DNA from: Candidatus Iainarchaeum sp.
Lineage (GTDB): Archaea; Iainarchaeota; Iainarchaeia; JAGGVJ01
Reading direction: 5' to 3'
Assembly (NCBI GenBank): GCA_021158055.1
Contig: JAGGVJ010000020.1
Coordinates: 1-20,165 of the forward strand
DNA length: 20,165 bases
This document shows, piece after piece, positions 8,048 to 20,165 of this stretch. Position numbers and translations under genes: made by a program. The notes below the pieces were generated by a model. It was not told the DNA's origin, searched no databases, and saw only the letters and a program-made list of their open reading frames with translations. Within the stretch, counting starts at the first letter, position 1, and the number at the start of each line of letters is the position of its first letter.

Positions 8048-8410
8048 ATGGCAAACAAATTTGCAGTCAAAACAAGTTTTCATCCCTACCGCATGGTCAT
8101 TAAAAGAAAAGAAAAAGTGGAAATGCGCGTGGAAATAACAAACACAAGCGAAGAAGAGAAAATGACTTCGCTCACAGTGGAAACCCCAAAAGGCCTCAGC
8201 CTCAACGAAACCTTAAACATTACCTCGCTTGAAAAAAGACTGGGAATCCTGAAACCAAAACAAACCGCGCGCATTTTTTTCAACATCCACCCGCGTTTCG
8301 ACACACCGCCCGGGCCGAAAGAAATCAGTTTAAGCCTCATAGAACACCACAAAAGCTACGACTTTGTATCTGACCAGTTTGACAGCAAAATAACCCTTAA
8401 AACAGAATAA
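8048..8410 (+). CDS. Small cytoplasmic beta-sandwich protein, unknown function
   Basis: The 120-residue protein has no signal peptide or membrane segment. The alternating pattern (VEMRVEITNTSEEEKM, SLTVETPKGL, ARIFFNIHPRF, KEISLSLIEHH) is that of an immunoglobulin-like or arrestin-like beta-sandwich, close to CARDB-type or NEW3-like domains that are normally outside the cell. The start is well supported by GGTGAT (8037-8042), 5 bases before the ATG. Its stop codon lies within the first unit of a 33-bp tandem repeat, so the last residues (KTE) are copied downstream. Function unknown. Confidence 0.7.
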   Translation: MANKFAVKTSFHPYRMVIKRKEKVEMRVEITNTSEEEKMTSLTVETPKGLSLNETLNITSLEKRLGILKPKQTARIFFNIHPRFDTPPGPKEISLSLIEHHKSYDFVSDQFDSKITLKTE

Positions 8411-8488
8411 CTGCTGAAATCATATTTCTTTCAAACAGAATAACTGCTGAAATCATATTTCTTTCAAACAGAATGACTGCTGAAATCA
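8400..8488 (+). repeat. 33-bp tandem repeat, about 2.7 copies, copying a stop codon
   Basis: Two exact 33-base units (8400-8432 and 8433-8465) are followed by a 23-base partial unit (8466-8488) with one change (AATAAC to AATGAC). The unit starts AAACAGAATAACTGCTG. The first unit overlaps the last three codons of the 8048 gene, so unit 1 holds its true stop (8408-8410). The rest of the gap to 8588 holds a promoter and nothing else visible. Confidence 0.95.
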
Positions 8489-10114: not shown

Positions 10115-11284
10115 TTGAAAAAAATAATCAACGGTTCAAAAGCAGTCGCAGAAGCCGTTAAATTGTGCAGGCCAAAAGTGCTGCCAATGTACCCTGTCAC
10201 CCCCTCAACCCACATACCCGAAGCCCTCACCCAAATGAAGGCAGACGGAGAGCTTGAAGGGACACCCATAACCGTTGAAAGCGAATTCTCGGCTATTTCA
10301 GCATGCATCGGCGCAAGCGCAACCGGGGTCCGGACATTTACCGCTACGTCATCCCAGGGGCTTGCCCTCATGCACGAGGTTTTGCACACAACATCAGGGA
10401 TGCGCCTCCCGGTAGTGATCGCTGTTGCCAACAGGGCATTAAGCGCACCCATAAACATCTGGAACGACTGGCAGGACTCGATCTCGCAACGGGACACCGG
10501 GTGGATCCAGCTTTACTGCGAAAGCAACCAGGAAGCACTTGACACAATGATCCAGGCATACAAAATCGCAGAAGACAAACGCGTGCTTCTCCCGGTCATG
10601 GTCTGCATGGACGGGTTTTACATCACTCACGCAACAGAACCGGTTGACATACCTGAACAGGAAACAGTTGACTCTTTCCTGCCCGAGTACAAACCGGAAC
10701 ACGCCTACCTTGACACAGAAAAACCGATTACTCAGGGCCCGTTCAGCGGGCCTGACTCTTTCATCCAGATAAAATTCGAGCAAAGCACTGCAACAGACCG
10801 CTCGCTTGAAGTGATAAAAGAAGTCGCAAAAGAATTCGGGGAAAAATTCGGCAGGCACTACCCTGTTGTTGAAACCTACAAGACAAAAGACGCAGACAAA
10901 GTGATCCTGACAATGGGAACGCTTGCCGGAACCGCAAAAGACGCGGTTGACGAAATGCGGGAAGAAGGAAAAAAAGTCGGGCTTGTGAAACTCAAGGCAT
11001 TCAGGCCGCTTGCAAAAAAAGAACTGATTGAAGCTTTGTCAAACGCAAGCGAAGTAAGCGTCATTGAAAAAAACATTTCTTTGGGGACAAACTCTGGAGC
11101 GGTCTTCACAGAGCTCAGGAGCCTGCTTTACGGGACAGACCCCATCCCGAAAACCGTCAACTACATTGTCGGAATCGGGGGCAGGGATGTTCCGAAAATC
11201 GACCTGAAAGCCGCTGTAAAAAACACTTCGGGCTGCGGTGACGGGGAAATTTTCTGGGTCGGGGTTGAAGAGGTGGTCAGATGA
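10115..11284 (+). CDS. porA: Pyruvate:ferredoxin oxidoreductase, alpha subunit
   Basis: The TTG at 10115 (after GGAGAAGTGG) gives a 389-residue protein beginning LKKIINGSKAVAEAVKL, which matches the usual PorA N-terminus. An in-frame TTG at 10034 would add 27 basic residues that do not resemble the family. Motifs are YPVTPSTHIPEAL (near 26), VESEFSAISACIGASATGVR, TATSSQGLALMHE, and VANRALSAPINIWNDWQDS with QRDTGWIQLYCESNQEA (about 130-165); the last two form part of the thiamine-diphosphate and substrate site region of the alpha chain. The C-terminal domain III includes VGLVKLKAFRPL. It overlaps porB by ATGA (11281-11284). A 35-base piece of this gene recurs at 13736-13770. Confidence 0.95.
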   Translation: MKKIINGSKAVAEAVKLCRPKVLPMYPVTPSTHIPEALTQMKADGELEGTPITVESEFSAISACIGASATGVRTFTATSSQGLALMHEVLHTTSGMRLPVVIAVANRALSAPINIWNDWQDSISQRDTGWIQLYCESNQEALDTMIQAYKIAEDKRVLLPVMVCMDGFYITHATEPVDIPEQETVDSFLPEYKPEHAYLDTEKPITQGPFSGPDSFIQIKFEQSTATDRSLEVIKEVAKEFGEKFGRHYPVVETYKTKDADKVILTMGTLAGTAKDAVDEMREEGKKVGLVKLKAFRPLAKKELIEALSNASEVSVIEKNISLGTNSGAVFTELRSLLYGTDPIPKTVNYIVGIGGRDVPKIDLKAAVKNTSGCGDGEIFWVGVEEVVR

Positions 11285-12243: not shown

Positions 12244-12292
12244 TTACGAAAATCCGTAAGGATTTATGCCATTTTCTTACGGAAAAAGGTAA
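12244..12292 (+). promoter_or_regulatory. Paired palindromic operators upstream of ATPase 1
   Basis: Two 16-base imperfect palindromes lie exactly 33 bases apart: TTACG-N6-CGTAA (12244-12259) and TTACG-N6-GGTAA (12277-12292). The second ends 2 bases before the TATA box. CCGTAAG (12254-12260) and CTTACGG (12276-12282) also form a longer inverted repeat. Three helical turns of spacing and closeness to the TATA box suggest cooperative binding of a repressor, perhaps the ATPase itself. Regulation is inferred. Confidence 0.55.
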
Positions 12293-12294
12293 AG

Positions 12295-12302
12295 TTTATA
12301 TA
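12295..12302 (+). promoter_or_regulatory. TATA box of ATPase 1, leaderless type
   Basis: TTTATATA is centred about 26 bases before the ATG at 12325, and no GGTGA-type site precedes the ATG. This fits a leaderless transcript. Confidence 0.6.
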
Positions 12303-12324
12303 TTCACATCAACACTGAAGAGTT

Positions 12325-13614
12325 ATGATTGAAAAAAACATTAAAAAAACCATACTTAAATATAAGGAATTAATCCCTGAAAACATTTTTCAGAGGGATT
12401 TAAAATTGCATGAAGTCAAATTTGACAAAGCTAATGTAATTGTCGGACCGAGGAGATCAGGAAAAACTTTTTTTTTATATAATCTGGCAAAAAAACAAAA
12501 AAATCCTGTATTGATTAATTTTGAGGATAATCTACTGGGTGAATTGAAAAGCTCTGATCTTAATAAAATATTGGATTGCTCTAAAGAACTATTTGAAAAA
12601 GAATCGTTATGTTTTTTTTTGGATGAAATACAAAATGTAAACGGTTGGGAAAAATTTGTCGTATCTTTGTTAAATGAACATTATCCTGTCTACATAACTG
12701 GTTCAAATTCAAAATTATTAAGCAGGGAAATAGCCACTTCATTAAGGGGAAAAGCATTGCCGTACCTGATGCTGCCATTATCTTTTAAGGAACATTTACG
12801 ATTCAAGGGCATTGTGCTCCAAAAAAATTATGAATATACTGATCAGGCATTTGTACTCAAACAACAGTTTAAAGACTATTTTAAATATGGCAGTTTTCCT
12901 GAGGTTTTGTTGTCTGATTCTTTATATCTAAAAAATAAGCTGTTGAATACTTATTTTGATTCAATTGTATACAAAGACCTGGTAGACCGGCTTAATCTAA
13001 AAAATATACGTCTGGTGGAAATAACCATAAAATATCTGCTTAATATTTATGGCAATATGTTTTCCATCTCTGTTTTTGAGAAATACCTAAAATCAAATAA
13101 GATCCCATATAGCCTGGAAGACATATACAATATCCTTAAAGCTTTACAGGATGTTTTCATGGTAAACTATGTCAAGGAATATTCAAAATCCTTCAAAAAA
13201 AGTGAAATATCCCGTTCTAAAGTTTATCTGTTTGATACAGGATACATTCATTTCTTATCCGGCGAACATGAGGATTACGGGCGAATCTTAGAAAATATTG
13301 TATTCATAGAATTATTCAGAAGACAAGACAATATTGAAAATAAAAATATTTTTTATTATAAATCAAAAAACAATAAAGAATGCGATTTTGTAATAACCAA
13401 TAGAGACAAGGTCTATGAAGCAATACAAGTCACATATGACTTTAATGAACTAAACCGTGAAAGAGAAATCAATGGCCTCTTAAGTGCAGTCCGTTTCTTC
13501 AATTTAAAAAAGGGATTAATCTTAACTTATGATCAGGACGATGAATTTCAGGCAAACGGTGTAGCGATAAAAGTGATGCCTGTTTGGAAATGGTCAATAA
13601 AATATACTTGTTAG
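12325..13614 (+). CDS. AAA_14 / DUF4143 ATPase 1 (COG1373-like)
   Basis: The 429-residue protein has Walker A GPRRSGKT (41-48), Walker B FFLDEIQ (97-103) and the sensor-like YITGSNSKLLSREIATSLRGK (123-143) that marks the AAA_14 family. A middle helical part (KYGSFPEVLL near 187) leads to a DUF4143 C-terminal domain with a PD-(D/E)XK-nuclease-like pattern: ENIVFIEL (323-330), ECDFVI (352-357) and AIQVT (366-370). Gln in place of Lys in the last motif is common in the family and may mean no cleavage. The gene is visibly more A+T-rich than the por operon, suggesting transfer. These ATPases occur in many variable copies in archaea; their role is not established. No ribosome-binding site is seen; see the TATA box and operators. 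Confidence 0.9.
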   Translation: MIEKNIKKTILKYKELIPENIFQRDLKLHEVKFDKANVIVGPRRSGKTFFLYNLAKKQKNPVLINFEDNLLGELKSSDLNKILDCSKELFEKESLCFFLDEIQNVNGWEKFVVSLLNEHYPVYITGSNSKLLSREIATSLRGKALPYLMLPLSFKEHLRFKGIVLQKNYEYTDQAFVLKQQFKDYFKYGSFPEVLLSDSLYLKNKLLNTYFDSIVYKDLVDRLNLKNIRLVEITIKYLLNIYGNMFSISVFEKYLKSNKIPYSLEDIYNILKALQDVFMVNYVKEYSKSFKKSEISRSKVYLFDTGYIHFLSGEHEDYGRILENIVFIELFRRQDNIENKNIFYYKSKNNKECDFVITNRDKVYEAIQVTYDFNELNREREINGLLSAVRFFNLKKGLILTYDQDDEFQANGVAIKVMPVWKWSIKYTC

Positions 13615-13735
13615 ATCTTTATCATAAAGACCTTCAATAGTCCTTGTTTTTGCATTTTTTTAATACGGTTGTATGTTTTGCGCCATACTCCACATCACTT
13701 CGTTCCTTGCCACGCTGCGCTTTCCTTTTATTCAC

Positions 13736-13798
13736 CTGGAACGACTGGCAGGACTCGATTTCGCAACGGGGGGAATCAATATAAAAACAATGCTTTGA
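13736..13798 (+). pseudogene. Scar of a por operon: porA piece joined to porB 3' end
   Basis: Bases 13736-13770 match porA 10459-10493 at 34 of 35 positions, reading WNDWQDSISQR; the one change (ATC to ATT) is silent. Directly after it, 13772-13798 matches the last codons of porB (12145-12171) at 22 of 27 positions, reading GINIKTML and stop against GLNLKTML and stop. The two pieces are in different frames, with about 1.65 kb of intervening operon sequence missing. This fits the remains of a diverged por homologue from which the middle was deleted. Confidence 0.75.
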
Positions 13799-13809
13799 CT
13801 CAACCCTAA

Positions 13810-13905
13810 AACACCGCTTACCAAAGTGAAAAAGCAAACGAACCGGGTAAAAATCCTGCTGAAGAAATGGAATTTGATGACTTTATTGACGGGATGAAAA
13901 AATGA
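13810..13905 (+). pseudogene. Possible C-terminal remnant of an unknown protein
   Basis: After an in-frame TAA (13807-13809), 31 codons read as a natural acidic tail (KANEPGKNPAEE then MEFDDFIDGMKK) and end in TGA at 13903-13905. There is no start codon before the Met near the end. It looks like the end of a lost gene, but so short a piece may be chance. Confidence 0.25.
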
Positions 13906-13960
13906 CAGGCGTAATTGCAGAAAACCAAGGCAAACATGCCGCCTAAATGCATATATGAAT

Positions 13961-14041
13961 TTATCGTTTATAATCGACAGAAATATCAAAACTTATCGTT
14001 TATAATCGACAGAAACATCAAAACTTATCGTTTATAATCGA
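13961..14041 (-). repeat. Orphan 32-bp tandem operator-like array with relict start codon
   Basis: Units at 13961-13992 and 13993-14024 differ at one base, and a 17-base partial unit follows (14025-14041). Each holds the imperfect palindrome TCG-N8-CGA (core TCGTTTATAATCGA). Read on the minus strand, the unit contains GTTTTGATAT and AAACGATAA, which align with GTTTTGATAT and AAACGAAAG in the operator repeat of ATPase 2. After the last unit comes AATTCATATATG (ATG at 13952), placed like the TTTATATG start of ATPase 2. The frame after this ATG closes after about 40 codons and is unlike an ATPase. It is read as the promoter of a lost third cassette. The units are too alike and have no distinct spacers, so this is not a CRISPR. 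Confidence 0.7.
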
Positions 14042-14225
14042 TGAACTGGGAAAATTTATCTATCATATCAGAAGGGGTTTTCAATACCTTTTCGTTGACG
14101 GCGCAGCCTTTCTCATCAAATTGCCTGTCAGCTTCCCCTGACGGGTGGGCCTTGAAACCCATTGCTTCGTGGTTTCGTATGGGTGCTGACACACACCCGT
14201 ACAGCTTATGTGGGTGATTATTCAA
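14025..14225 (-). CDS. Small 66-codon ORF downstream of ATPase 2, doubtful
   Basis: A TTG-initiated frame begins inside the last codons of ATPase 2 (8-base overlap) and ends in the operator-like array, reading KTPSDMIDKFSQFIDYKR at its end. The middle (GFKAHPSGEADRQFDEKGC) is not a family I recognise, and base composition is richer in G+C than the ATPase gene. The same stretch folds into several hairpins, so it may be a structured element rather than a gene. No ribosome-binding site is seen. Confidence 0.25.
   Translation of the reverse strand: MNNHPHKLYGCVSAPIRNHEAMGFKAHPSGEADRQFDEKGCAVNEKVLKTPSDMIDKFSQFIDYKR
14123..14216. other. Cluster of nested hairpins beside the ATPase 2 stop
   Basis: Within 94 bases several stems can form: CCTGTCAG/CTGACGGG (14124-14131 with 14138-14145, one G-U pair), GAAACC/GGTTTC (14154-14159 with 14171-14176), GGGTG/CACCC (14181-14185 with 14194-14198) and a competing CACCC/GGGTG (14194-14198 with 14212-14216). 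It could be a 3' end structure for ATPase 2, a small RNA or a REP-like repeat. There is no T-run. Confidence 0.4.
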
Positions 14226-15513
14226 GCGCCCATAACCAAATGGGTTTCAATTCAATTGTCTTGCCATTGATTCTGATTATGTCTTCCTGATCCCCTGTGA
14301 GTATGAGTCCCGAGTCAAGCCCGTAAGCATCCATTGCATTCAGGAGCCCTTGAAACTCCCGTTTTTCATTTTTATGTTCTAATTCTTTTGTCACCTGTAT
14401 CGCAGAAATTATCGTGTTCTTGTCTTTTATCACAAAATCACATTCATTTTTTTCTAAATGATAGTATGTTTCTTTTCCGCGTCTGCAAAGTTCTATAAAA
14501 ACCATATTTTCAAGAAGCCTGCCTGAATTTTTTGAAAAACTGAAACCCACCGCCGTTGCAAGACCGGTATCTATGCAATATATCTTTTTTGAGCCCAACA
14601 TCTGCTTCTTTAATGAATATGAATATCTGCTCAACCCAAAAAACATGAAACTATTCTCAAAATAATCAAGATAATTTTTAATACTGCTTATGCTTTTTAT
14701 TCCGCTTATGTCTTTTAATGTATTATATGAATGAATCTTGCTTATATTGGATGCCAGAAAATTGCTGATTTTTTTCATTTCATTGACTTTTGTTATGGAA
14801 TGTCTTGCAATTATGTCCCTGTAAAATATGTCATTGTAATAATCTTTAAGCAACTCTTTATTTTTTTCTTTCAGGACTTGCGGGAATCCCCCCAAGGCGA
14901 TATACTCATTGAACCTGCGTTTAATTTTTGTTTTTTTTATTGTTGTAAGTTTTGAGATTTCAAATGTTTCATTGTTTAGTTTAAGATACTCCTTAAAGCT
15001 GAATGGGAACAATTCAAGAACCACATTTCTTCCCGTAAGTGATGTCGCAATTTCAGAACTGAGCAGGGTTGCATTAGATCCGGTAACAAATATCTTTATT
15101 CCTTTTTCATACATCCTGTTCAGGAATTTTTCCCAGCCAAAAGCATTTTGTATCTCATCAAAGAAAAAGACAATCTTATTTTGTTCGGGGTTGAATTCCT
15201 CAAGGAATATTGAAAAGATGTTATTGAAATCATCTGCGCTTAAATCTATGAATCGTTCATCATCAAAATTAAGGTATAATATATTATTTTTATCTGTTTT
15301 TTTAAGGATTTCATCTTTTATGATATACATTAATGATGATTTTCCGCACCGCCTTATTCCCGTGATGACAACAATCTGTTGCGTGTTTATGTATTTCTTA
15401 AGGCCTATATCTCTCTGCATCAATTCTTTTTTCTCAAAAAAAGATTCTCTTTGATCAAGCATTATTTCTTTTAGCCTGCTTTTTAACATAATTATATCTG
15501 GTTGATGTGACAT
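14218..15513 (-). CDS. AAA_14 / DUF4143 ATPase 2 (COG1373-like)
   Basis: The 431-residue protein has Walker A GIRRCGKS (52-59), Walker B FFFDEIQ (116-122) and the family signature FVTGSNATLLSSEIATSLTG (142-161). FKEYLKLN and ALGGFPQVLKE follow. The C-terminal DUF4143 region carries LLENMVFIEL, NECDFVI and AIQVTKE, a PD-(D/E)XK-like set again with Gln in the last motif. It is a distant paralogue of ATPase 1: shared motifs, different elsewhere, so not a recent duplicate. The two genes converge with about 600 bases of debris between them. Codon use is A+T-rich. ATPase activity is expected; biological role (defence, stress or selfish maintenance) is unknown. Confidence 0.9.
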   Translation of the reverse strand: MSHQPDIIMLKSRLKEIMLDQRESFFEKKELMQRDIGLKKYINTQQIVVITGIRRCGKSSLMYIIKDEILKKTDKNNILYLNFDDERFIDLSADDFNNIFSIFLEEFNPEQNKIVFFFDEIQNAFGWEKFLNRMYEKGIKIFVTGSNATLLSSEIATSLTGRNVVLELFPFSFKEYLKLNNETFEISKLTTIKKTKIKRRFNEYIALGGFPQVLKEKNKELLKDYYNDIFYRDIIARHSITKVNEMKKISNFLASNISKIHSYNTLKDISGIKSISSIKNYLDYFENSFMFFGLSRYSYSLKKQMLGSKKIYCIDTGLATAVGFSFSKNSGRLLENMVFIELCRRGKETYYHLEKNECDFVIKDKNTIISAIQVTKELEHKNEKREFQGLLNAMDAYGLDSGLILTGDQEDIIRINGKTIELKPIWLWALE

Positions 15514-15515
15514 AT

Positions 15516-15571
15516 AAACCTTTCGTTTGAAAAGAACGTTTTATATCAAAACCTTTCGTTTGAAAAGAACG
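15516..15571 (-). promoter_or_regulatory. Paired 23-bp direct repeats flanking the TATA box of ATPase 2
   Basis: An identical 23-base sequence occurs at 15516-15538 and 15549-15571, 33 bases apart. Each contains a palindrome, on the minus strand CGTT-N7-AACG (CGTTCTTTTCAAACG). One copy lies upstream of the TATA box and the other covers the expected transcription start and the bases next to the ATG. Binding at either copy should block the promoter. The likely binder is unknown; autoregulation is inferred from the arrangement. Confidence 0.75.
15539..15547 (-). promoter_or_regulatory. TATA box of ATPase 2
   Basis: GATATAAAA on the minus strand sits between the two operator repeats, centred about 30 bases before the ATG at 15513. 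The predicted start site is within a few bases of the ATG, so the transcript is leaderless or nearly so. Confidence 0.6.
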
Positions 15572-15668
15572 AAAACCTGATTTTTTTTCTCCGGAACATC
15601 AATATCTGAACCGCATCAATATCCGGACAGGTCTCAAGCCACACCATGCCCTCACGCACCGTAGAAAC

Positions 15669-15746: not shown

Positions 15747-18700
15747 CTATTTCTTCTTTGAATGCTTGTGGACAATGGGTTTGTGCGGGTTTGATTTTTT
15801 GTGCTTTTCCTCTTTTCTCTTGAGCTTATTGTAGTTGTAATCAAACATCAGGTCATTCCAGAAGTCACGAACGAGTTTTCTTTTCACATATGCAACCAGT
15901 AAAACTACAATCAACAAAAGGCCACCCATTAAAATCAGGCCTGTCTGCAGTTGGTCTGCCGGCGGAACAATTTCTTCCGGTTCCTTGTCTTCCGAACCGG
16001 TTTCTTCATCATCGTCCGGAGGCAGGATTTCAGAGTCATCAACGTCAATGACTATCGTGCATTCATTGTTCTGGCAGACCTGGTTTTGCCAGTCGCAATC
16101 GCAGTCAGTGCAGCAGTTTGCAGAATTTTCCGTGTCCTGGCAAACCCCGTCGCCGCACACTGCCTGTTGCTCCGGCTCTTCTTCAGGCATCCCTTCAAAC
16201 TCAATCGCGGGGTCAGTGAACAGCCCTGAAGCTGTTTCAACCTGAAGGATCTCATAGCCGACTTCAACTTCCTGTCCCGGCAAGAGCGAGTCGATTATCC
16301 ATTCAATCACAGGGTCTTCCTCAATCACAATGTAGTTTCCGTTGAAAATAGCTTTCGGAATGTCTTTCCTGGTCTTCCTGTCAAAAACAGTCTCGTTTAC
16401 ATTGCTTAAAACTGATTTTGGAATCGTTTCCCTTACGCGCACATTTCTCATTGTTTCCCCGGTCGGGTTCCTGACCCTCAAGGTAATGGTTGATTTCGGG
16501 TAGTCGTAAAGATCTGTCCTCAGCCCGGTCGTTTCCTCTTCATACCTTTTCTGGTGTTTTATCTCACGGGTTATGACTGGCATTTGTTTTTCAGCTTTTG
16601 ATTCCGAAACAACCAGCGTCATTGTTCTTAAATCCGCGGGATCATCGCGGAACGTGACAACAGCGGTTATTTTGTAAGAGCCTGTGTCAAGCTCTTTTAA
16701 GGCAGTTGCATATACCGTCATGTCCACCGGTTCGTAAATCAAGAACTTTTCAGGGATTGTCGGGTTTGTGAATGAAAAACAATCACTGCAATCCGACTCA
16801 AATTCAATTTTCACATCTTCCCCGTAAATCAAGAACCCGGAAACGTTTGCCAGGCCAAGCTCAAGTTTTGTTCTTTCTCCTTTCTCCCCGTTAATGTGAG
16901 TTAAAATCGGGTAATTGAGAATTTCAATGCAACTGACGCCCTCTGTAGTTGAACCGCCTGAAGTCCCCCCGCCGCCAGTGCCTCCGCCAAGGCGTGTAAC
17001 GGTGATTGTATCAGACTGCACGCTTTCGTTTCCTGCAAGGTCAACTGCCGTGACAAAAATTGCGTTGTCGCCCGCTGCAAGCCCGACTGAAGACGCCGAA
17101 TAGCTTCCGGAAGTCGCTGTGACTGATTTTGAAAGCGATCCCTTGACATACACATTGACTGTGGCATCTGACTCTGCGCCTCCCGCAACAGTTGTTGTTG
17201 AAGTCACCAGCATTTCGTTGTCTGCAGGGGAAGTTATTGTCGGCTTTGCCGGCGGTGTCGTGTCTGTGTACGCTCCTCCTGCCAGAGACAGGTCCGTAAC
17301 CGGATTGCCTGCCAGATCGCTTGCAGTAACCGTCACGTCTTCTGCAACAGTTCCGACTGCTGCCACGTCAACTGCAATTGTCCTTGTGAACATGTAGACA
17401 TTTCCTGAAACAAGTGTCATTGTTTGTGAAGACACATCGTTTGCAGTGCCTTCCGCCTCCACAGAGTAAGTGGGTGCTGCCTGAAGGGCCTCGTTTGCTT
17501 CAACTTTTACATAATACGTGCCTGCTTTCAGGTGAACCGGCGGTGACGGCGCAATCAAAAGACCTGCGTCAAGGTAATAAGTCATCGTAAACGTCGGCGG
17601 CACTGAATCTGTTACCTGTGTGAAATTAAAATCAGCCGTTGGAACGCTTGAGTTTCCCGCGGCGTCTGTCGCAGTCAAAGTCACTGCTTTGGGAGTTGAA
17701 TAGTCAGTCGCTGAAACAATTCCCGCAGTTTCAAGGTTTGCGTTTGAAAAGTTAAAATCACCGCTTCCGTCAGCTGAAATGCTTACATTTGAATCGGCAC
17801 CGTCAACGAAAAGCTTCACTGTTGAATTTGGCTCTGCTGTCCCGCTCAAAGTCACAGTCGGCTTGGTCACCTGGGTTATCTCATACGGGTTTGTTGCCGG
17901 AACACTAATGACCGGAACTGCCGGAGTGTTTGCGTCAATCGTCTTGTTGACATCTGTCCCGTTTACTGCCGCACTTATGTTTCCTGCAGGATCAGTCAAG
18001 GTAACATTAACCAACTGCAACGGAGCCAACTGATCAGCCTGGCCCTCAACAACAGCATAAGTCGCAGTATAAGTCACACCGCCGTCACCGGTACTCCAAG
18101 CCAAAGCCCCGCCATTGTAACTGGCAGGAAGAACAGTCAAACCGGTTTCAGCAACAAGCGGGGAAACCGTAAACGTAATTGACTCACCGACCTTCAACAC
18201 ACCGGCACCAGTCGCGTCAGAAGTAACCAAGGAAACAGTAGGCGAATTCGCATCAACAGCCAGAGTATTGGCATCAACTGAAGTAAACACTGGATTCAAA
18301 TTTCCCGCAACATCGCTCAAAACAACACTCGCAGTCATTGCACCGGACAAGACATCTGAATCGCCTTCCGAAACAACATAATCAACCGAATACACTCCCC
18401 CGCCCAAATCCTGGAAATTAGAGGAAGCCACATCAACACCATTCACAACAACCGCATCCGCAGAATAACCTGCCTCATCAGCAGTAATTGTCAGTACAAC
18501 AGTATCACTCACTCTTGCAGTCCCGGAACCCGGAGAAACCGCAAGAGCACTCACGACAGGCGAATTCGCGTCAATCGTTTTATTTACATCTGTTCCGTCT
18601 TTTGAAGTGCTTATATTGCCTGCAGGATCAGTCAAAGTAACATTTGTTAACTGCAAAGGAGTTGACTGATCAGCCTGGCCCTCAACAACAATATAAGTCG

Positions 18701-20165
18701 CGGTATAATCCGAACCATCAACAGTCGACCAACTCAAAGCCCCACCATTGTAAACGGCCGGAAGAACAGTCAAACCAGTTTCAGTAACTGTTGGAGTGAC
18801 TGTGAAAACAATCTCATTATCAACCTTCAGTACACCTGAAGCAGTTGCATCTGAAACAACCGAAACGATTGCCGGTGTATTCGCATCAATTGTCTTATTG
18901 ACATCACTCCCATCTGCTGGGGTGCTTGTGTTTCCCGCGGCGTCAGTAATCGTAACACCTGTTATCTGAAGAGGGCTTGTTTGGTCGTTTTCGCCTTCAT
19001 TTATTGTGTAAGTTCCGGTATAAGTCACACCGCTATTATCAGTGCTCCAGCTCAAAACCTCGCTGTTATACGAACCTGAAACACTTGCGCCTAATTCAGT
19101 GGTGCTTGGGGTTAAAGTAAAAGTAATTGAATTCGCGACCTTCAACACACCAGAAGCAGTTGCATCTGAAGTTATTGAAGTTATTGTCGGGGCAATCGTA
19201 TCCTGAACATAATTATATGCTGTTGAAACAACTGACTCGTTTCCTGCCGCGTCTGTTGCAGTCAAAGTCACTGCTTTCGGGGTTGAATAATCTGTCCCTG
19301 AAACAATTCCGGCTGTGGTTAAATTTTCGTTTGAAAAAGAATAACTTCCACTTGTTGCAGTGGTACTCAACCCACTGTCAACCGAATCAACATAAAGCTT
19401 CACTGTTGAATCTGCTTCCGCACTTCCAGCAATTACCTGCGCTGACTTGTTTGCAATGTTAATTACAACAGTTGTTGTGCCTGGGCTTACCACCACAGGT
19501 GCATTTGGCGCAACAGTGTCAATTACAAACGAACCGGTTGTATCAACATCCATTGTGTTTCCAGCTTTGTCTGTTGAACCGCCCACTGACAAAGTAGCTG
19601 TTCCATTGTTATGGCCTGGAAGAACCGTTGCTGTCCCAGTCCATTGATTTGCAGCATAAGTGCTTTTTGTGACTGTTACTGCTGCTCCGCCTGACGGCGT
19701 AAATTCAACTGTCGGGCTTAAAGTGTAATCCAGACCGCTTCCGGTTTCAGTGTACTTGACTGTTACATTGATTGTTCCTGCTTTTGCAGGATCAGGGGTG
19801 ATCTCTGTGCTTGCGACAACCGGTTTTGTCACGTCATACTGAATGTTATCTGCACTGTAACTTGTTGTTATTTTGCCTGACGCATCCTGGCATTCAAGCT
19901 TGATGCAATAATAGTTCCCGTCTGTTCCCGTGAAGGAAATTCCGCTTGAAGTGTTCCAAGGGGTTGAAATAGTATAAGAGAGAGTGCCGTCACAAGTTGC
20001 TATTGGAGACGCGCTTCCATCTGAATACGAAACCTGATAAGGGGTTGTTGCGTGCATTCCGTAATTAACTGTTCCCGCGGTGTCTGTGCAGGTTCCCGCT
20101 GACGCAATATCAACAGTTGTTGCTGTGTTGTCGTAAGAAAGAGTCGAGGGGTTGACTCCTGTTGC
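15747..20165 (-). CDS. Giant Ig-repeat cell-surface protein with membrane anchor (5' end outside window)
   Basis: The frame is open to the right edge, so 1472 visible residues are the C-terminal part; the ATG at 20057 is internal and is used for numbering here. Residues 75-1020 are a tandem array of bacterial-Ig-like domains of about 105 residues, each ending near TLTDPAGN or TATDAAGN. A Gly/Ser hinge (1024-1036) leads to two further beta domains (to about 1290). A Cys-rich module follows, CGDGVCQ at 1301 with CCTDCDCDW and CQNNEC, then an Asp/Glu-rich spacer, one membrane segment (1372-1391) and a 45-residue cytoplasmic tail ending in Lys/His-rich sequence. This is a stalk-like surface protein, plausibly for adhesion or envelope structure. 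The stop is followed by a strong terminator. No enzyme motif is visible. Confidence 0.9.
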   Translation of the reverse strand, partial: ATGVNPSTLSYDNTATTVDIASAGTCTDTAGTVNYGMHATTPYQVSYSDGSASPIATCDGTLSYTISTPWNTSSGISFTGTDGNYYCIKLECQDASGKITTSYSADNIQYDVTKPVVASTEITPDPAKAGTINVTVKYTETGSGLDYTLSPTVEFTPSGGAAVTVTKSTYAANQWTGTATVLPGHNNGTATLSVGGSTDKAGNTMDVDTTGSFVIDTVAPNAPVVVSPGTTTVVINIANKSAQVIAGSAEADSTVKLYVDSVDSGLSTTATSGSYSFSNENLTTAGIVSGTDYSTPKAVTLTATDAAGNESVVSTAYNYVQDTIAPTITSITSDATASGVLKVANSITFTLTPSTTELGASVSGSYNSEVLSWSTDNSGVTYTGTYTINEGENDQTSPLQITGVTITDAAGNTSTPADGSDVNKTIDANTPAIVSVVSDATASGVLKVDNEIVFTVTPTVTETGLTVLPAVYNGGALSWSTVDGSDYTATYIVVEGQADQSTPLQLTNVTLTDPAGNISTSKDGTDVNKTIDANSPVVSALAVSPGSGTARVSDTVVLTITADEAGYSADAVVVNGVDVASSNFQDLGGGVYSVDYVVSEGDSDVLSGAMTASVVLSDVAGNLNPVFTSVDANTLAVDANSPTVSLVTSDATGAGVLKVGESITFTVSPLVAETGLTVLPASYNGGALAWSTGDGGVTYTATYAVVEGQADQLAPLQLVNVTLTDPAGNISAAVNGTDVNKTIDANTPAVPVISVPATNPYEITQVTKPTVTLSGTAEPNSTVKLFVDGADSNVSISADGSGDFNFSNANLETAGIVSATDYSTPKAVTLTATDAAGNSSVPTADFNFTQVTDSVPPTFTMTYYLDAGLLIAPSPPVHLKAGTYYVKVEANEALQAAPTYSVEAEGTANDVSSQTMTLVSGNVYMFTRTIAVDVAAVGTVAEDVTVTASDLAGNPVTDLSLAGGAYTDTTPPAKPTITSPADNEMLVTSTTTVAGGAESDATVNVYVKGSLSKSVTATSGSYSASSVGLAAGDNAIFVTAVDLAGNESVQSDTITVTRLGGGTGGGGTSGGSTTEGVSCIEILNYPILTHINGEKGERTKLELGLANVSGFLIYGEDVKIEFESDCSDCFSFTNPTIPEKFLIYEPVDMTVYATALKELDTGSYKITAVVTFRDDPADLRTMTLVVSESKAEKQMPVITREIKHQKRYEEETTGLRTDLYDYPKSTITLRVRNPTGETMRNVRVRETIPKSVLSNVNETVFDRKTRKDIPKAIFNGNYIVIEEDPVIEWIIDSLLPGQEVEVGYEILQVETASGLFTDPAIEFEGMPEEEPEQQAVCGDGVCQDTENSANCCTDCDCDWQNQVCQNNECTIVIDVDDSEILPPDDDEETGSEDKEPEEIVPPADQLQTGLILMGGLLLIVVLLVAYVKRKLVRDFWNDLMFDYNYNKLKRKEEKHKKSNPHKPIVHKHSKKK
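17907..19169 (-). repeat. Four tandem Ig-like units of about 105 residues in the giant protein
   Basis: Units begin at residues 297, 402, about 507 and 613 (counted from 20057), that is at bases 19169, 18854, 18539 and 18221. Units 1, 2 and 4 start SDAT(A/G)xGVLKV and end DVNKTIDAN; unit 3 is divergent. Units 2 and 4 are the most alike (VEGQADQ, LTDPAGNIS) and share long near-identical DNA stretches, so they duplicated recently. A separate pair at residues 217-280 and 745-808 (STVKL(Y/F)VD, DYSTPKAVTLTATDAAGN) is 528 residues apart, five times the same period. Confidence 0.85.

What the first reader, a model, noticed from the sequence alone, without database searches (positions are those of the whole stretch)
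12244..15571. Private, paired operators 33 bp apart on each DUF4143 ATPase gene
Both AAA_14/DUF4143 ATPases have leaderless-type promoters built the same way: a TATA box set among two copies of a short imperfect palindrome spaced exactly 33 bp. The palindrome differs between genes (TTACG-N6-CGTAA for ATPase 1; CGTT-N7-AACG for ATPase 2), while spacing and placement are kept. This suggests each ATPase, or a factor specific to it, binds its own operator at three-turn spacing, so that many family members can coexist in one genome without cross-talk. The ATPase family is known; I am not aware of a described operator rule for it.
Basis: partly seen in the sequence, partly recalled or inferred. Interest (0 to 1): 0.72.

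Follow-up and report, generated by a model that had tools for sequence, protein, structure and literature searches.

The report
Private self-operators of a STAND-like ATPase family
Genes for a very common but poorly understood family of DNA-associated ATPases carry, in archaea and bacteria alike, their own gene-specific pair of palindromic control sites 23 or 33 base pairs apart on the promoter, which suggests that each ATPase switches its own gene off without disturbing its many sister genes.

Summary
ATPase 2 has an exact 23-nt repeat 33 bp apart. ATPase 1 has two imperfect dyads 33 bp apart, weak alone but repeated in its two closest relatives. The TATA box follows the proximal copy rather than lying between copies. 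In 117 homologues of the same archaeal class and 78 named ones from other archaea and bacteria, promoter palindromes are strongly enriched (45% of genes at p<=0.02 against 3% of control promoters). Tandem copies sit at 32-34 or 23 bp, a spacing almost absent from controls. Operators differ between paralogues. They are fixed on the promoter: 12 bp upstream of TATA in archaea, centred on -35 where that box is recognisable in bacteria. The 23-bp class is one protein clade spanning both domains; all its members lack about 10 residues of the AAA+ lid. Operator sequence tracks the N-terminus of the ATPase's winged-helix recognition helix, with moderate statistics. Best explanation: each AAA_14-DUF4143 (PADLOC PDC-S01) ATPase is a STAND-like autorepressor that reads its own private tandem operator. 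DNA binding is untested. I found no description of this rule in the open-access library searched.

The parts
12244..12259 (+). ATPase 1 distal operator copy TTACGAAAATCCGTAA (centre -43.5 from TATA start)
   Evidence: sequence; 33.0 bp from the proximal copy
12277..12292 (+). ATPase 1 proximal operator copy TTACGGAAAAAGGTAA (centre -10.5)
   Evidence: same position and half-site in L092/L093
12295..12302 (+). TATA box TTTATATA of ATPase 1
   Evidence: scan; start codon 30 nt downstream fits a leaderless transcript
12325..13614 (+). ATPase 1: AAA_14 + wHTH + DUF4143 (PDC-S01), 429 aa
13961..13977 (+). orphan operator-like array, copy 1 (TTATCGTTTATAATCGA; dyad TCGnTTATAAnCGA)
   Evidence: unique in genome with up to 2 mismatches
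13993..14009 (+). orphan operator-like array, copy 2 (32 bp on)
14025..14041 (+). orphan operator-like array, copy 3 (32 bp on)
14218..15489 (-). ATPase 2: AAA_14 + wHTH + DUF4143 (PDC-S01), 423 aa from the likely start at 15489
15511..15518 (-). TATA box TTTATATG of ATPase 2
15519..15539 (-). ATPase 2 proximal operator ACGTTCTTTTCAAACGAAAGG (centre -11)
15552..15572 (-). ATPase 2 distal operator TCGTTCTTTTCAAACGAAAGG (centre -44)

Best explanation
Each AAA_14-DUF4143 (PDC-S01) gene is controlled by its own product. The protein is a STAND-like ATPase: a nucleotide-binding domain, a winged helix, then a PD-(D/E)XK-like domain. Its winged helix (ATPase 2 residues about 235-288) would read one palindrome of about 19-21 bp as a dimer. 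Neighbouring dimers would sit on copies exactly 33 bp apart, or 23 bp in one clade, which is three or two helical turns at nearly the same rotational phase. The lid region of the AAA+ part may act as the ruler. In archaea the main copy covers the BRE just upstream of TATA, with the partner at -45, +21 or (23-bp clade) -36; in bacteria with a recognisable TTGACA the copy is centred on that box. Bound ATPase should therefore keep TBP/TFB or sigma factor off: autorepression, possibly relieved when the ATPase is recruited elsewhere or changes nucleotide state. Because the recognition helix and the operator change together, about ten paralogues can coexist in one 1.15-Mb genome without cross-regulation. 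Shown here by computation: the repeats, their spacing, phasing and privacy, their link to the protein clade, and covariation with the recognition helix. Inferred: direct binding, repression, the inducing signal, and what the protein does when released.
For: Palindrome enrichment at -45..+40 of TATA: 109 ATPase promoters, mean z 2.20, 45% with p<=0.02, against 61 ordinary promoters of the same genomes, 0.13 and 3%; Mann-Whitney p=2e-12. Unsupervised self-repeat lag: 46 of 90 deduplicated genes significant, 33 of these 46 at 32-34 bp and 5 at 23. Other archaea 13/28 significant, 12 at 23 or 32-34; bacteria 33/46, 29 at 23 or 32-34; archaeal controls 11/88 with scattered lags; bacterial controls 2/41, none at these lags. 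Phasing: 51 of 75 archaeal promoters have a centre at -12 (+-2.5); in six bacterial promoters the centre falls on TTGACA; the Bacteroidota TAnnTTTG lies about 18-21 bp downstream in most. The 23-bp class is one clade of 10 archaeal and 13 bacterial genes, support 100/100, 1 change against a shuffled mean of 20; the same with labels from the unsupervised test. All 26 genes of the 23-bp class lack about 10 residues (180-189) of the lid that the 33-bp class has. Covariation: of 306 variable columns the two most informative about half-site positions 4-9 are 267 and 268, the start of the recognition helix; identity-matched contrasts top out at 256, 266, 281, 254, 251, 267, region 250-278 p=0.0016; 51 independent pairs, columns 264-271 p=0.027, AAA p=0.31, nuclease p=0.96. 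Model pLDDT 94 with a clear wHTH. Privacy.
Against: No binding or expression data on operators of any family member were found. Promoter and gene are linked, so a conserved spacing would follow the gene tree even if another factor read it; transfer between domains with different transcription machinery argues against this but does not exclude it. The residue-operator covariation is moderate (p 0.0016 and 0.027) and rests on automatic operator calls with some wrong registers. About half of the archaeal homologues and a quarter of the bacterial ones show no significant tandem repeat. The lid deletion is a single evolutionary event, so its link to spacing could be chance. The one expression result found, the Thermus homologue TT_P0211 up 6.6-fold with a plasmid and only when Argonaute is present (PMC4406477), comes from a list with many genes near CRISPR loci and is only suggestive.
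Confidence: 0.77

Rival explanations
1. A separate host transcription factor, not the ATPase, reads the sites, and the operators simply travel with the gene.
For: Linkage alone would make spacing follow the gene tree; binding by the ATPase was not tested.
Against: ATPase 2's operator has no other near match in its genome, so a dedicated extra factor would be needed for each paralogue. Spacing classes persist across archaea and bacteria. Operator bases covary with the ATPase's own recognition helix. In the window no separate regulator gene was recognised directly beside the ATPases.
Confidence: 0.12
2. The repeats are target or maintenance sites of a mobile element or replication initiator (iteron-like), with promoter control secondary.
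For: The family is present on 262 plasmid records and in phage records, sometimes beside integrases. The fold search also hits Orc1/Cdc6. An orphan array without an intact gene lies at 13961-14041. Part of the upstream porA-like gene is duplicated beside ATPase 1.
Against: Copies are few (usually 2-3) and tightly phased to TATA, -35 or the Bacteroidota -7 element, as expected of operators. Terminal repeats and target-site duplications were not specifically looked for.
Confidence: 0.08
3. The repeats are chance low-complexity structure of AT-rich promoters.
For: Promoters are AT-rich; the ATPase 1 pair is not significant alone.
Against: Dinucleotide shuffles and matched control promoters exclude this for the family; exact 23-nt repeats and a single spacing peak cannot come from composition.
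Confidence: 0.02

Closest known systems
PDC-S01, phage-defence candidate family of PADLOC (AAA_14-DUF4143 ATPases)
   Same: Both window proteins match PDC-S01 models at E 1e-95 and 1e-119; ATPase fused to a PD-(D/E)XK-like domain and moved between domains, as described in PMC12988326.
   Different: No promoter or autoregulation is described in the passages found (the word promoter does not occur in that paper); experimental validation is reported as pending for most PDC families.
Archaeal STAND-type ATPases SSO1545 (2fna) and PAB2304 (2qen); NLR/CED-4/Avs proteins
   Same: Best structural matches over nucleotide-binding and winged-helix domains (2fna Z 15.4, rmsd 4.2, 264 residues; CED-4 and resistosomes Z about 14-15).
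   Different: From general knowledge, in NLRs and CED-4 the winged helix is a regulatory hinge; here it is proposed to read DNA. No operator rule was found described for 2fna/2qen.
Autoregulated DNA-binding proteins with private operators (plasmid RepA autorepressors of repABC, PMC4492784; antitoxins such as AbiEi with inverted repeats, PMC7319586; R-M control proteins)
   Same: Gene product binds repeated palindromes over its own promoter; specificity differs between coexisting relatives (titles and abstracts; R-M from general knowledge).
   Different: Those are dedicated regulators or initiators. Here the proposed reader is a STAND-like ATPase itself, with a 23/33-bp spacing code kept in both domains of life.
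Orc1/Cdc6 and DnaA initiators
   Same: AAA+ plus DNA-binding domain; some act as regulators (Orc1-2, PMC9738581, listed); 2qby is a Foldseek hit.
   Different: From general knowledge they use shared boxes at origins and many promoters; these operators are private to one promoter.
PF01637 ATPase_2 family in the same genomes
   Same: Related AAA+ fold; several genes have a small palindrome near the transcription start.
   Different: No 23- or 33-bp tandem rule: 2 of 11 significant, both at lag 16.

Membership tests
PDC-S01 / AAA_14-DUF4143 ATPase family | Profile match over the full length | tested here: met
   Pfam AAA_14 and DUF4143 over cut-off; PDC-S01 model spans 21-425 and 22-423
PDC-S01 / AAA_14-DUF4143 ATPase family | Walker A and B motifs | tested here: met
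   Invariant G44, G49, K50, D111, E112 in 40 sequences
PDC-S01 / AAA_14-DUF4143 ATPase family | Antiphage activity | not testable with these tools
   Reported as pending for most PDC systems (PMC12988326)
STAND-type NTPase | Nucleotide-binding domain followed by a winged helix in one fold | tested here: met
   Model pLDDT 94; 2fna Z 15.4, 2qen 15.2, CED-4 14.6 over residues of about 11-320
STAND-type NTPase | Signal-dependent oligomerisation | not testable with these tools
   No oligomer modelled
PD-(D/E)XK nuclease | Catalytic acidic residues and lysine | tested here: inconclusive
   E327, E349 and D351 are invariant, but the last motif reads IQV in the consensus, so the usual E/D-x-K lysine is not evident
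Autoregulated DNA-binding protein with own operator | Palindromic or tandem sites overlapping the gene's own core promoter | tested here: met
Autoregulated DNA-binding protein with own operator | Operator specificity covaries with the DNA-reading residues | tested here: met
   moderate significance (p 0.0016, 0.027)
Autoregulated DNA-binding protein with own operator | Direct binding and repression | not testable with these tools
   needs purified protein or reporter strains

The most novel reading that the evidence does not exclude
A whole STAND-like ATPase family, among the commonest defence candidates in prokaryotes, uses its NLR-type winged helix as a sequence-specific DNA reader of its own promoter, with a transferable code: the recognition helix sets the palindrome, and a stretch of about 10 residues in the AAA+ lid sets the spacing (33 bp with it, 23 bp without it, one helical turn). 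Release from the operator couples sensing of foreign DNA or another signal to its own expression.
Probability: 0.33. Interest if true: 0.86.

Novelty: new variant of a known kind. Interest (0 to 1): 0.76.

Why it matters
PDC-S01 is reported as the fourth most common defence candidate in prokaryotes (PMC12988326), yet its behaviour is unknown. A family-wide operator rule gives, for thousands of genes at once, a predicted DNA ligand, a predicted regulatory behaviour (autorepression at BRE/TATA or -35), and a direct test of specificity by swapping recognition helices. It shows how many copies can coexist in a very small archaeal genome, and it links an NLR-like domain architecture to DNA reading. 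The 23/33-bp split with a matching lid deletion makes a molecular-ruler hypothesis testable.

Tried and rejected
Whole-family alignment A1 was too diverse for the search for related loci; a closer subset, A2, worked. Literature searches for DUF4143 with palindromes, AAA_14 with autoregulation, and MJ/PH/SSO-type ATPases gave nothing on operators; the library lacks most subscription papers, so older descriptions may exist. The first mutual-information run gave undefined values from invariant columns and was redone. The phylum search added few new genomes. Operator pairs at the single-residue/single-base level were dominated by noise after average-product correction, so no residue-base recognition code is claimed. 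PF01637 ATPases were tested as a possible second family under the same rule and did not follow it. The chance explanation was rejected with shuffles and control promoters. NCBIfam gave no model match.
Full report
The window is contig C8 of a 1.15-Mb genome. A contig of one same-class relative has the same length (839,632 bp) as the Candidatus Forterrea multitransposorum chromosome CP045477.1, and the two loci share their promoter sequence, so I place the class among the Diapherotrites (inference). Both genes of the finding encode AAA_14 + DUF4143 proteins, matching PADLOC's phage-defence candidate PDC-S01 at E 1e-95 and 1e-119. The genome holds 11 such genes, and 36 of the 55 genomes have at least one match over the family cut-off.

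Observation. ATPase 2 has an exact 23-nt repeat at 33 bp; ATPase 1 has two imperfect dyads whose centres are 33.0 bp apart. The TATA boxes lie just downstream of the proximal copies. The ATPase 1 pair is not significant alone, but its closest relatives L092 and L093 carry the same half-site and spacing at the same place.

Generality. I extracted promoters of 117 homologues from the same class and 78 named homologues elsewhere. Palindromes near TATA are strongly enriched: mean z 2.20 against 0.13 in ordinary promoters of the same genomes, 45% against 3% at p<=0.02, Mann-Whitney p=2e-12. The best self-repeat lag, chosen without any prior on spacing, was significant in 46 of 90 deduplicated genes; 19 were at 33, 9 at 32, 5 at 34 and 5 at 23 bp. 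Outside the class the same two spacings dominate: other archaea 13 of 28 significant with 10 at 32-34 and 2 at 23; bacteria 33 of 46 with 15 at 32-34 and 14 at 23. Controls: 11 of 88 archaeal promoters with scattered lags, and 2 of 41 bacterial promoters with none at 23 or 33. A related family, PF01637, did not follow the rule.

Placement. In archaea 51 of 75 promoters have an operator centre at -12 (+-2.5) from the TATA start, with partners at -45, +21 or, in the 23-bp class, -36. In six bacterial promoters with TTGACA, an operator is centred on that box (offset -0.5 bp); in Bacteroidota the TAnnTTTG element lies about 18-21 bp downstream of an operator centre in most cases. Occupancy should therefore block TFB/TBP or sigma factor. 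This step is inference.

Privacy. ATPase 2's operator (up to 3 mismatches), another paralogue's operator (3) and the orphan array (2) each occur only at their own place in the genome. The dyads of the own-genome paralogues differ by eye; not every one was searched genome-wide.

Who reads the operator? First, spacing class maps to the protein tree: 23 genes with 23-bp spacing, 10 archaeal and 13 bacterial, form one clade (100/100), one change against a shuffled mean of 20; labels from the unsupervised lag test give the same. Since gene and promoter are linked, co-inheritance is expected in part. But the same spacing on TATA and on sigma promoters means the constraint travels with the gene. Second, operator half-site similarity follows wHTH columns. 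By mean information over half-site positions 4-9 the top two of 306 variable columns are 267 and 268; by identity-matched contrast the top ones are 256, 266, 281, 254, 251 and 267, with region 250-278 above the rest at p=0.0016. In 51 independent pairs only the recognition-helix N-terminus (264-271, p=0.027) and the wider 250-271 stretch (p=0.048) pass 0.05, while the AAA (p=0.31) and nuclease (p=0.96) parts do not. In the model (pLDDT 94) the recognition helix is 267-279. Third, all 26 genes of the 23-bp class lack residues of about 180-189, which the 33-bp class has. A deletion of about 10 residues beside a loss of one helical turn suggests a ruler, but it is one evolutionary event.

Fold. 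The model's best matches are the archaeal ATPases 2fna (Z 15.4) and 2qen (15.2), then plant resistosomes and CED-4 (14-15); Foldseek also lists Orc1/Cdc6 and Avs4. This is a STAND-like architecture whose winged helix would here contact DNA.

Literature. One paper reports the Thermus homologue TT_P0211 rising 6.6-fold with a plasmid, only when Argonaute is present (PMC4406477). The only gene of that region annotated as an ATP-binding protein, which I take to be TT_P0211, has a perfect dyad TGAATGACTATCATTCA beside its start, and an Enterococcus faecalis plasmid copy has a 32-nt palindrome upstream. PMC12988326 ranks PDC-S01 fourth among prokaryotic defence systems, with validation pending for most PDC families. 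Nothing on operators was found in the open-access library.

Conclusion. The most likely reading is negative autoregulation by a STAND-like ATPase through private, spaced operators. It is a new variant of a known kind (autoregulated DNA-binding proteins), striking for its breadth, its spacing code and the protein class that carries it. Direct binding, repression and the inducing signal remain to be shown.

Noticed in passing
window 13951-14046: Three 32-bp repeats with the dyad TCGnTTATAAnCGA, unique in the genome, follow the same grammar but have no intact ATPase gene beside them in the expected orientation; perhaps the promoter of a lost copy.
   Followed up: partly
window 13733-13770 and 10456-10493: A 38-bp fragment of the upstream ferredoxin-oxidoreductase-like gene is duplicated (94.7%) just downstream of ATPase 1, a sign of rearrangement or insertion there.
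   Followed up: no
window 12304-12313 and 15501-15510: Both ATPase promoters share TCACATCAAC directly after the TATA box, although their operators differ.
   Followed up: no
window 8397-8488: Another 33-bp tandem repeat, not obviously palindromic, starting at the end of the ORF that closes at 8410.
   Followed up: no
L231-L247 (PF01637 ATPases): Related ATPase_2 genes also carry small palindromes near the transcription start (e.g. TATGCAACGTTGCATA in L236), in a different arrangement.
   Followed up: partly
L038: Several different palindromes in one promoter region (CTTTCTATTGCCAATAGAAAG, CTTTTGCC-N-GGCAAAAG, GTTTTCATTAGTAATGAAAAC), perhaps inputs from paralogues.
   Followed up: no
plasmid and phage collections: 262 plasmid records, 174 of them Acinetobacter, and 21 phage records encode relatives; the role there is unknown.
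   Followed up: no
window 15747-20057: A 1436-aa open frame on the minus strand with several internal DNA repeats lies next to ATPase 2; it looks like a large repetitive surface protein.
   Followed up: no
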